Origin: a virus
Virus record (IMG/VR): IMGVR_UViG_3300005842_000120
Coordinates: 1 to 21,350 of that record
Length of the DNA stretch: 21,350 bases
Reading direction: 5' to 3' (one strand)
The first letter of the stretch is position 1; the number at the start of each line of letters is the position of its first letter. The notes beneath the pieces are model-generated. The model worked only from the letters and a program-made list of their open reading frames with translations, was not told the DNA's origin and made no database searches. A program made the translations under genes and the position numbers. Positions 2,359 through 3,506 of this stretch are shown in pieces.

Positions 2359-2380
2359 GGGTGGCCCTTCGGGGCCACCT
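2359..2380 (+). terminator. UUCG-tetraloop hairpin before the tmRNA-like RNA
   Basis: The stem 2360-2367 / 2372-2379 is 8 bp, plus a terminal G-U at 2359/2380, closed by a TTCG tetraloop inside C(UUCG)G. It starts five bases after the TGA of the preceding gene. No T tract follows, so this may be an intrinsic terminator of the U-poor actinobacterial kind, or a processing or insulating hairpin that frees the 5' end of the RNA beginning at 2385. Confidence 0.55.
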
Positions 2381-2384
2381 CCCC

Positions 2385-2463
2385 GGGCCTGGAATGGTTT
2401 CGACATCCGTGAAAGCCGCACGCGGAACACGGATGGACAGGGGTTCGAATCCCCTCAGGTCCA
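2385..2463 (+). ncRNA. Compact tmRNA-like RNA: tRNA-like domain without mRNA domain
   Basis: The acceptor is 2385-2391 with 2456-2462: 7 bp, including G3-U70, the alanyl-tRNA synthetase identity pair, with discriminator A at 2463. Bases 2392-2403 carry GGTTTCGA followed by C, the conserved tmRNA D-loop block (GGUUUCGAC in actinobacterial ssrA). An 8-bp helix (2404-2411/2428-2435) matches tmRNA helix 2, but it is closed by a 16-nt loop rather than opening into pseudoknots and a tag ORF. A GGAC linker (2435-2438) and a perfect T arm (2439-2443/2451-2455, loop TTCGAAT) complete the tRNA-like domain. CCA is not encoded (CGC follows A73). No 5-bp anticodon stem with a 7-nt loop can be drawn, so an ordinary tRNA is unlikely. 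Expected function, by inference: an alanylated, SmpB-binding RNA without a message. Confidence 0.75.
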
Positions 2464-2481: not shown

Positions 2482-2652
2482 ATGCACGCATACAATCGCA
2501 CGGAAGCGGACGGGTCCGACTCGATCGCAGTGTGCGCCACGAAGGATGAGTGGCAGCAGGTCATCGACGACATCATCAAGGGTCATCCGGAGGACGCTCA
2601 ACCAGCGACTCACCGGCTGTTCACAGTCCTCGATCAGATGGGACTTGTGTGA
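2482..2652 (+). CDS. Small hypothetical protein (56 aa)
   Basis: A strong AAGGAGG at 2470-2476 lies 5 nt before the ATG, the best ribosome site in this block. This suggests fresh initiation after the structured RNA. The protein has a central acidic helix (KDEWQQVIDDIIKG) and ends at a GTGTGA junction, where the helicase GTG overlaps the stop. Not recognised. Confidence 0.65.
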   Translation: MHAYNRTEADGSDSIAVCATKDEWQQVIDDIIKGHPEDAQPATHRLFTVLDQMGLV

Positions 2653-3506
2653 AGACACTCGCACGACAGGTCAGGCGCGGCGTCTCCGCAGGGGAGCCGC
2701 TGCCTAGTCCCTGGTCCGTATTCGATGAGAACAAGATGACCTTCCGGCGGGGGTCGCTCAGTATGATCGCCGGTCCCCCCGGCTCGATGAAGACCGTGCT
2801 CGCACTGAACATCGTGCGACAGATGGGAGCCGAGGTTCCCACGATGTACCACTCGTCGGACTCGGATGACTTCACCATGGCCAGCCGAACCCTGTCGATG
2901 CTGACAGGAACGCCGACCGAGGAGACCGAGCTCTGGGTGATGGGTCAGAAGGCCTTGGCCTATGAGACGCTCAAGGACATGGACCACATCAGGTGGTCGT
3001 TCCGCTCCAGCCCTACACTGGAGCACATGTGGCGGGAAGCGGAAGCTTTCCGTGAGCTGAACGGCGAGTACCCGCATCACACCGTCATCGACATCATGAT
3101 GGACATCGATTATGAAGGGGCGGGTGAGCAGAACTACTGGGCCCTCATGGCAGAGCTGAAGGACATGGCCCGTGAGCAAGAGACGGCGATCACGATCGTG
3201 CATCATACTTCTGAGTCAGCGAAAGGGGGATCTCCACCCCCTCGAAGTGCGATCATGGGGAAAGCGAATCAGCTCCCAACGCTCATTCTCACTCTTTGGG
3301 GTGACGCTTACGCTGGTACGCTGGACGTCGCCACAGTGAAGAACCGCTTCGGCCCTCAGGATGCGATGGGCAAGAAGTATTTCAAGATGAGTGCTTCCCC
3401 CGCCATCTGCCTGATCGAGGAACGAGAGCAGCAAGAGGTTCCGTTGCTCTTCAAGGATGGTCCCGACGTGGATTCCGAGGATAAGATCAATGCGTGGGAG
3501 GACTGA
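2649..3506 (+). CDS. RecA/DnaB-type ATPase, putative replicative helicase (285 aa)
   Basis: The GTG at 2649 overlaps the previous TGA. Walker A is GPPGSMKT at residues 42-49, Walker B is TVIDIM at 145-150. A sensor-like IVHHTSES segment at 184-190 is followed by a Pro/Ser/Arg loop and MGKANQLP, which parallels the H4-type DNA-binding loop of DnaB/Gp4 and KaiC-like ATPases. It lacks the N-terminal primase-interacting domain of full DnaB (about 450 aa) and is a core-only form, as seen in other actinophages. With the primase at 4850-5753 it would make up the phage replisome, probably with host polymerase or a polymerase outside the window. Confidence 0.85.
   Translation: MKTLARQVRRGVSAGEPLPSPWSVFDENKMTFRRGSLSMIAGPPGSMKTVLALNIVRQMGAEVPTMYHSSDSDDFTMASRTLSMLTGTPTEETELWVMGQKALAYETLKDMDHIRWSFRSSPTLEHMWREAEAFRELNGEYPHHTVIDIMMDIDYEGAGEQNYWALMAELKDMAREQETAITIVHHTSESAKGGSPPPRSAIMGKANQLPTLILTLWGDAYAGTLDVATVKNRFGPQDAMGKKYFKMSASPAICLIEEREQQEVPLLFKDGPDVDSEDKINAWED

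What the first reader, a model, noticed from the sequence alone, without database searches (positions are those of the whole stretch)
2385..2463. A 79-nt tmRNA-like RNA that keeps the tRNA-like domain but has no message
Seen directly: 7-bp acceptor with G3-U70, discriminator A, a D-loop block GGTTTCGAC as in actinobacterial ssrA, a helix-2-like 8-bp stem, a GGAC linker and a perfect TTCGAAT T arm. Normal bacterial tmRNA is roughly 350-400 nt, and helix 2 opens into pseudoknots and a tag ORF; here the stem closes on 16 nt. Known: G3-U70 directs alanylation, and SmpB binds this elbow. Inference: a tag-less, alanyl-charged RNA that could act as a decoy or inhibitor of host trans-translation, add a single alanine to stalled chains, or serve another rescue role. 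Reduced tmRNAs without an mRNA domain have been reported in some mitochondria; I know of none described in phages.
Basis: partly seen in the sequence, partly recalled or inferred. Interest (0 to 1): 0.92.

Follow-up and report, generated by a model that had tools for sequence, protein, structure and literature searches.

The report
Message-less tmRNA widespread in phages
The window's phage makes a tiny RNA that keeps only the tRNA-like half of the bacterial ribosome-rescue RNA (tmRNA); more than 200 other phage sequences, including dozens of laboratory Streptomyces phages where nobody annotated it, carry the same thing, which points to a common viral way of interfering with, or borrowing, ribosome rescue.

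Summary
Window 2385-2463(+) is a 79-nt RNA gene made of a complete tmRNA tRNA-like domain (TLD) with no tag frame and no pseudoknots. Rfam tmRNA matches it end to end at 63.3 bits with the message domain deleted. It is not a chance find. 171 IMG/VR hits match the strict consensus at the right size, others have drifted D-loops, and 82 Streptomyces BE-type phage records carry a form of it, unannotated. Across 98 distinct sequences the helices covary strongly, while G3-U70 is invariant (98/98) although neighbouring acceptor pairs change freely. The 16-nt loop is not plain: it holds a conserved cap hairpin, typically AAAGCC-NNNN-GGA. The class is viral (about 1% of sampled Actinomycetes genomes carry one). 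No phage checked encodes SmpB, and at least two carry it beside a full-length tmRNA. Most likely mechanism (inferred, about 50%): a host-alanylated mimic that competes with tmRNA for SmpB, EF-Tu and stalled ribosomes. Tag-less rescue is the main rival.

The parts
2385..2463 (+). TLD-only tmRNA (message-less tRNA-like RNA), 5' end to discriminator A73; CCA not encoded (CGC follows)
   Evidence: Rfam RF00023 63.3 bits; family model R1 89.9 bits
2385..2391 (+). acceptor 5' strand GGGCCTG, with G3 of the G3-U70 pair
   Evidence: pairs with 2456-2462; G3-U70 in 98/98 distinct family members
2396..2404 (+). tmRNA-type D loop GGTTTCGAC, no D stem
   Evidence: sequence; Rfam alignment
2405..2411 (+). 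helix 2, 5' strand (7 bp; 8 with C2404-G2435)
   Evidence: pairs with 2428-2434; all 7 pairs have double changes in relatives
2412..2427 (+). cap replacing the message domain: AAAG + hairpin CCG(CACG)CGG + AA
   Evidence: a scan with this 15-mer alone gave 95 loci, at least 54 of which hold a whole TLD RNA; hairpin enriched also in members lacking the 15-mer
2428..2434 (+). helix 2, 3' strand CACGGAT
2435..2438 (+). GGAC linker typical of tmRNA
   Evidence: sequence; Rfam alignment
2439..2455 (+). T arm, loop TTCGAAT
2456..2463 (+). acceptor 3' strand CAGGTCC with U70, then discriminator A73
2360..2379 (+). GC-rich UUCG hairpin directly upstream; terminator-like or processing stem (role inferred)
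   Evidence: sequence; similar stems upstream in several near relatives
2482..2652 (+). 56-aa ORF directly downstream with AGGAGG ribosome site just before it
   Evidence: read from the sequence
2550..3506 (+). DnaB-like helicase gene of the same early operon (start probably 2649)
   Evidence: PHROG 243, E 4e-77

Best explanation
The locus makes a small stable RNA that is the tRNA-like half of tmRNA with helix 2 capped off, so it has no message. Shown: structure, family, covariation, invariance of the alanine identity pair, viral distribution. Inferred: host RNase P/Z and the CCA enzyme mature it, host alanyl-tRNA synthetase charges it, and host SmpB and EF-Tu bind it. It then competes with host tmRNA for SmpB and/or enters the A site of ribosomes stalled on broken mRNA, and may take the nascent chain onto its single alanine. 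Because it carries no tag frame or stop codon, normal trans-translation is blocked or short-circuited. During infection this would keep host rescue from tagging and destroying nascent phage proteins or from recycling ribosomes on cleaved mRNAs.
For: End-to-end tmRNA match lacking only the message. In 98 distinct sequences 95.5% of pair cells are standard against 67.0% shuffled, with 625 double-change cells against 187. G1-C72, G2-C71 and G3-U70 are invariant in 98/98 while acceptor pairs 4-6 show up to five standard pair types; G3-U70 is 34/34 in the set found by the cap 15-mer only, and U70 serves no pairing purpose that a C would not serve better. tmRNA D-loop and GGAC motifs are kept in most members. 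No SmpB in 42 phage records, with all bacterial controls positive, so host SmpB would be used. -10-like boxes are enriched just upstream, and nearby tRNA genes lie on the same strand 132 to 1. A TLD-only RNA of this kind (phage DS6A) is reported to inhibit tmRNA in E. coli (PMC4131195, PMC11915505).
Against: No transcript, charging or SmpB binding was measured. Riptide and Daubenski carry this RNA beside their own full-length tmRNA, which a plain inhibitor would also hit unless timed differently. Their copies have lost the TTCGAC and GGAC motifs while keeping G3-U70 and the cap, which argues against SmpB titration as the only role. The inhibitory TLD reported worked whether chargeable or not (PMC4131195), so pure titration does not explain the absolute G3-U70 conservation.
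Confidence: 0.5

Rival explanations
1. Tag-less rescue RNA: charged with alanine it enters stalled ribosomes with SmpB, accepts the nascent chain and lets the ribosome be released without a degradation tag, perhaps helped by a release factor or peptidyl-tRNA hydrolase. It would be a positive factor that spares phage proteins.
For: Absolute G3-U70 and A73 mean charging matters; it coexists with full-length phage tmRNA, as expected of an accessory rescue factor; tag-less tmRNAs persist together with SmpB in mitochondria (PMC11915505).
Against: No known step frees a ribosome after a message-less TLD; the DS6A form is reported as inhibitory in E. coli (PMC11915505).
Confidence: 0.2
2. Alanyl-RNA with a job away from stalled ribosomes: a substrate or decoy for host AlaRS or another enzyme that uses Ala-tRNA, or regulation through the cap hairpin bound by an unknown protein.
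For: In BE-type Streptomyces phages the SmpB-contact motifs decay while G3-U70 and the GAAAGCC cap stay fixed.
Against: Most members keep the tmRNA D-loop and GGAC motifs, which AlaRS is not known to need.
Confidence: 0.12
3. Bait or spare for host defence nucleases that cut tRNA or tmRNA.
For: Often placed in phage tRNA arrays (27 of 102 loci have a tRNA within 1 kb); phage tRNAs are known from general literature to counter tRNA-cutting defences.
Against: Many carriers have no tRNA nearby; it has no anticodon loop, the usual target.
Confidence: 0.07
4. Inert remnant: a tmRNA pseudogene, an attP copy of host ssrA, or an assembly deletion.
For: Phages do carry ssrA 3' ends near integrases (Gordonia Yeezy and Tsukamurella TPA4).
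Against: Both halves are present, helices covary, the length is sharply held at 49-55 nt between fixed motifs in 171 of 172 viral hits, and it occurs in at least 22 unrelated DNA backgrounds. The integrase-side copies score only about 22 bits with the family model.
Confidence: 0.02

Closest known systems
Mycobacteriophage DS6A TLD-only tmRNA (Mao et al. 2009, as cited in PMC4131195 and PMC11915505)
   Same: Phage-encoded, little more than the TLD, no tag frame
   Different: Single reported case; its sequence was not in the collections held, so presence of the cap hairpin could not be compared
Canonical tmRNA / ssrA (Rfam RF00023), including full-length phage tmRNAs
   Same: TLD with G3-U70, D-loop block, helix 2 start, GGAC, T arm
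   Different: No tag reading frame, no pseudoknots, about 80 nt against 268-400; helix 2 closed by a conserved hairpin
Mitochondrial tmRNA of jakobids and relatives (RF02544); ~65-bp plastid forms of Mallomonadaceae
   Same: tmRNA without tag frame
   Different: Organellar, mitochondrial ones mostly permuted; nuclear SmpB partner; no capped helix 2 described in the papers read
Two-piece permuted tmRNA of phages (e.g. Melnitz, Stenotrophomonas and Pseudomonas phages; RF04321)
   Same: Phage-borne tmRNA-type RNA
   Different: Permuted gene with a coding piece; the family model scores them at about 31 bits or less against at least 51 for confirmed members

Membership tests
tmRNA (RF00023) | tRNA-like domain with G3-U70, A73, stemless D loop, GGAC, T arm | tested here: met
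tmRNA (RF00023) | message domain with resume codon, tag frame and stop | tested here: not met
   304 of 374 model positions absent; 16 nt in their place
tmRNA (RF00023) | pseudoknots PK1-PK4 | tested here: not met
   only a 3-bp cap hairpin lies between the helix 2 strands
tmRNA (RF00023) | alanylation and SmpB binding | not testable with these tools
   identity pair invariant in 98/98, but no biochemistry
TLD-only tmRNA (DS6A type) | complete TLD and no message | tested here: met
TLD-only tmRNA (DS6A type) | sequence homology to the DS6A RNA | tested here: inconclusive
   DS6A record not held under JN698994 or NC_023744
TLD-only tmRNA (DS6A type) | inhibits endogenous tmRNA | not testable with these tools
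   published for DS6A only (PMC11915505)
tRNA | anticodon arm of 5 bp and 7-nt loop, D stem | tested here: not met
   7-8 bp helix with a 16-nt capped loop and no D stem; ARAGORN finds no tRNA, best clan match is tmRNA
Permuted/two-piece tmRNA | 3' acceptor piece precedes the 5' coding piece | tested here: not met
   5' and 3' TLD halves are in normal order within 82 nt

The most novel reading that the evidence does not exclude
A large virus-specific RNA class, not just decayed tmRNA: an alanyl-charged TLD whose capped helix 2 was selected for an active task (tag-less rescue or ribosome control) that works alongside full-length phage tmRNA, with the cap as a binding site for a host or phage factor.
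Probability: 0.3. Interest if true: 0.9.

Novelty: new variant of a known kind. Interest (0 to 1): 0.76.

Why it matters
Trans-translation is nearly universal in bacteria and a drug target, yet how phages deal with it is little known. A common viral RNA that mimics its entry half would show that phages manipulate ribosome rescue. It would also give a natural test of what a message-less tmRNA does, a question open for mitochondrial tmRNA too. About 80 records of sequenced Streptomyces phages carry it unannotated, so it can be tested now in laboratory hosts.

Tried and rejected
tRNA with odd anticodon arm: rejected (no D stem, no 5+7 arm). Host ssrA attachment-site remnant: rejected; integrase-side ssrA-like ends exist (TPA4, Yeezy) but score only about 22 bits. 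ARAGORN 'tmRNA' calls in L101 and L148 joined a chance 5' domain upstream to the real TLD, so they are false long calls. Gammaproteobacterial phage hits by BLAST proved to be permuted two-piece tmRNAs, not this class. Bacterial pattern hits: 42 of 45 were 3' halves of ordinary tmRNA or chance; 3 are real. DS6A could not be fetched. Plasmids: no full match. Idea that the cap is a remnant of pseudoknot 1 (AAA..CCGC just before the tag in tmRNA): only a few bases in common, left as a lead. Literature searches for a described phage family of this RNA found only DS6A; subscription papers and preprints were not covered.

Full report
What is there. Window 2385-2463(+) folds as a complete tmRNA tRNA-like domain: 7-bp acceptor with G3-U70, discriminator A, stemless D loop GGTTTCGAC, helix 2 of 7-8 bp, GGAC and a TTCGAAT T arm. 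Rfam's tmRNA model matches from first to last position at 63.3 bits (cut-off 47), with 304 positions replaced by 12 nt. ARAGORN misses it.

Setting. The window is a 21,350-base IMG/VR virus record. Its capsid gene matches Streptomyces phages at about 80-86%, and the left half is an early/replication operon: exonuclease, this RNA, DnaB-like helicase, endonuclease VII, primase. By reading, a 51-aa ORF (2199-2354) and a UUCG hairpin (2360-2379) precede the RNA, and a 56-aa ORF with its ribosome site follows directly.

It is a family. BLAST found the same short RNA, not annotated as an RNA, in tRNA arrays of LuckySocke, GiJojo, pSt2308, BRock and Alone3, in the otherwise different 45-kb phage Shaeky, and in Riptide. 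Two independent IMG/VR scans were run. One used only the cap 15-mer AAAGCCGCAYGCGGA (95 loci); one used only the flanking TLD motifs with a free gap. At least 54 of the 95 cap loci hold a whole TLD RNA. In the search true members scored 55.9 bits or more and the next matches 34 or less, mostly tRNAs. The strict motif census by next base gave 53, 54, 52 and 6 loci. In the loci fetched, 171 of 172 viral hits span 49-55 nt although the pattern allowed much longer gaps, whereas hits in bacterial contigs spread over 43-72. A more diverged copy in Daubenski (51.9 bits) found 82 Streptomyces phage records with a match over at least 80% of its length (some are GenBank/RefSeq duplicates), none of those listed annotated; abstracts on BE phages list one tmRNA each.

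Selection on structure. On 98 distinct sequences, 95.5% of cells form standard pairs (shuffled 67.0, sd 0.7; slid by one column 48-51), with 625 double-change cells against 187 and covariation 0.686 against 0.138. That alignment was fitted to the model, so helix 2 was retested without alignment, counting inwards from the fixed GAC and GGAC motifs in non-redundant members: 0.91 paired against 0.43 shuffled, maximum 0.52. Among 81 members lacking the cap 15-mer, 72 still have a hairpin of at least 3 bp there against 45 in shuffles (maximum 54), and 56 keep AAA before it; loops are mostly CNNG or GNRA types.

Alanine identity. G1-C72, G2-C71 and G3-U70 are invariant in 98/98, although acceptor pairs 4-6 vary through up to five standard types. 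In the set found by the cap alone G3-U70 is 34/34, with D-loop T(C/T)GAC in 25 and GGAC in 22. G3-U70 is the alanyl-tRNA synthetase identity pair, completely conserved in tmRNA (PMC3985003). I infer that charging matters for function.

Where it occurs. In 84,980 species genomes the TLD pattern gave 45 hits, of which 3 are true members (Acidimicrobiales, Mycobacterium and Phycisphaerales MAGs). R1 found 4 of 395 Actinomycetes genomes, the centre genome included. Several of these neighbourhoods hold phage genes (head morphogenesis, exonuclease, replication initiation, two phage families of unknown function); the proteins tested from L234 and L259 matched no phage family, so those two are not shown to be prophage. 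The three bacterial genomes tested also have a separate longer tmRNA match. No SmpB was found in 42 phage records, while all ten bacterial controls matched. Riptide has this RNA and a 269-nt tmRNA with tag ANSKFAFALAA; Daubenski likewise has both. It is therefore not simply a decayed substitute. Members lie in 22 to 49 unrelated DNA backgrounds depending on the threshold, with the caveat that loci are fragments. TANNNT boxes at -18 to -11 occur in 20 of 82 non-redundant loci against 8.9 (sd 2.6) in shuffles and not in two other windows; tRNAs within 1 kb are on the same strand 132 to 1.

Known work. Hudson et al. 2014 (PMC4131195) list mycobacteriophage DS6A as 'TLD only' and cite Mao et al. 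2009 that a similar molecule, chargeable or not, strongly inhibits tmRNA, perhaps by titrating SmpB. Nawrocki et al. 2025 (PMC11915505) state that the DS6A form inhibits endogenous tmRNA in E. coli, and report CDS-less forms in plastids and mitochondria. The kind is therefore known from one phage. The breadth, the conserved cap, the coexistence with full-length phage tmRNA and the absolute G3-U70 are what I did not find described in the papers held.

Mechanism. Shown: a selected, viral, message-less TLD. Inferred: maturation, alanylation and entry into the rescue pathway. The DS6A result makes interference with host trans-translation the best guess. Two facts keep confidence at about one half. 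Pure SmpB titration does not need G3-U70. And in BE phages the D-loop and GGAC motifs have drifted while the GAAAGCC cap and G3-U70 stay fixed in the isolates examined, in phages that also carry a full-length tmRNA. This favours a charged RNA that acts on ribosomes, either blocking or tag-less rescue, and leaves open a factor that binds the cap.

Noticed in passing
L091, L043, L058, L049 (GCC/GTAC), L036, L069, L013 (GTC/GCAC) against most members (GAC/GGAC): The middle base of the D-loop triplet and the second base of the GGAC linker change together in several members, as if they touch in the fold; a few members (L040, L057) break the pattern.
   Followed up: partly
L107, L126, L164, L190, L179 upstream of the RNA: Good -10 boxes, some with a terminator just before them, sit right at the 5' end of the RNA, suggesting a dedicated promoter in some environmental phages.
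   Followed up: partly
L248, L249, L250, L257 (phages SM1, DLP_6, Rb1, XacN1): Permuted two-piece tmRNA genes, not annotated in these records.
   Followed up: yes
L004 1-335: Riptide has a Ro-like RNA-binding protein gene about 2 kb upstream of its message-less tmRNA; bacterial Ro partners are RNAs with tRNA-like parts (from general knowledge).
   Followed up: no
L101 5386-5670 and L148 5905-6228: ARAGORN makes long false tmRNA calls by joining a chance 5' domain to this RNA, so annotation may hide the class.
   Followed up: yes
L203 2190-2276 and L214 6794-6880: Microvirga lenta carries two near-identical short tmRNA-like stretches (41.8 bits) on different scaffolds; not counted as members because the acceptor strands do not pair by eye; nature unclear.
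   Followed up: no
window 2360-2379: A strong UUCG hairpin stands directly before the RNA in this phage and in several near relatives.
   Followed up: partly
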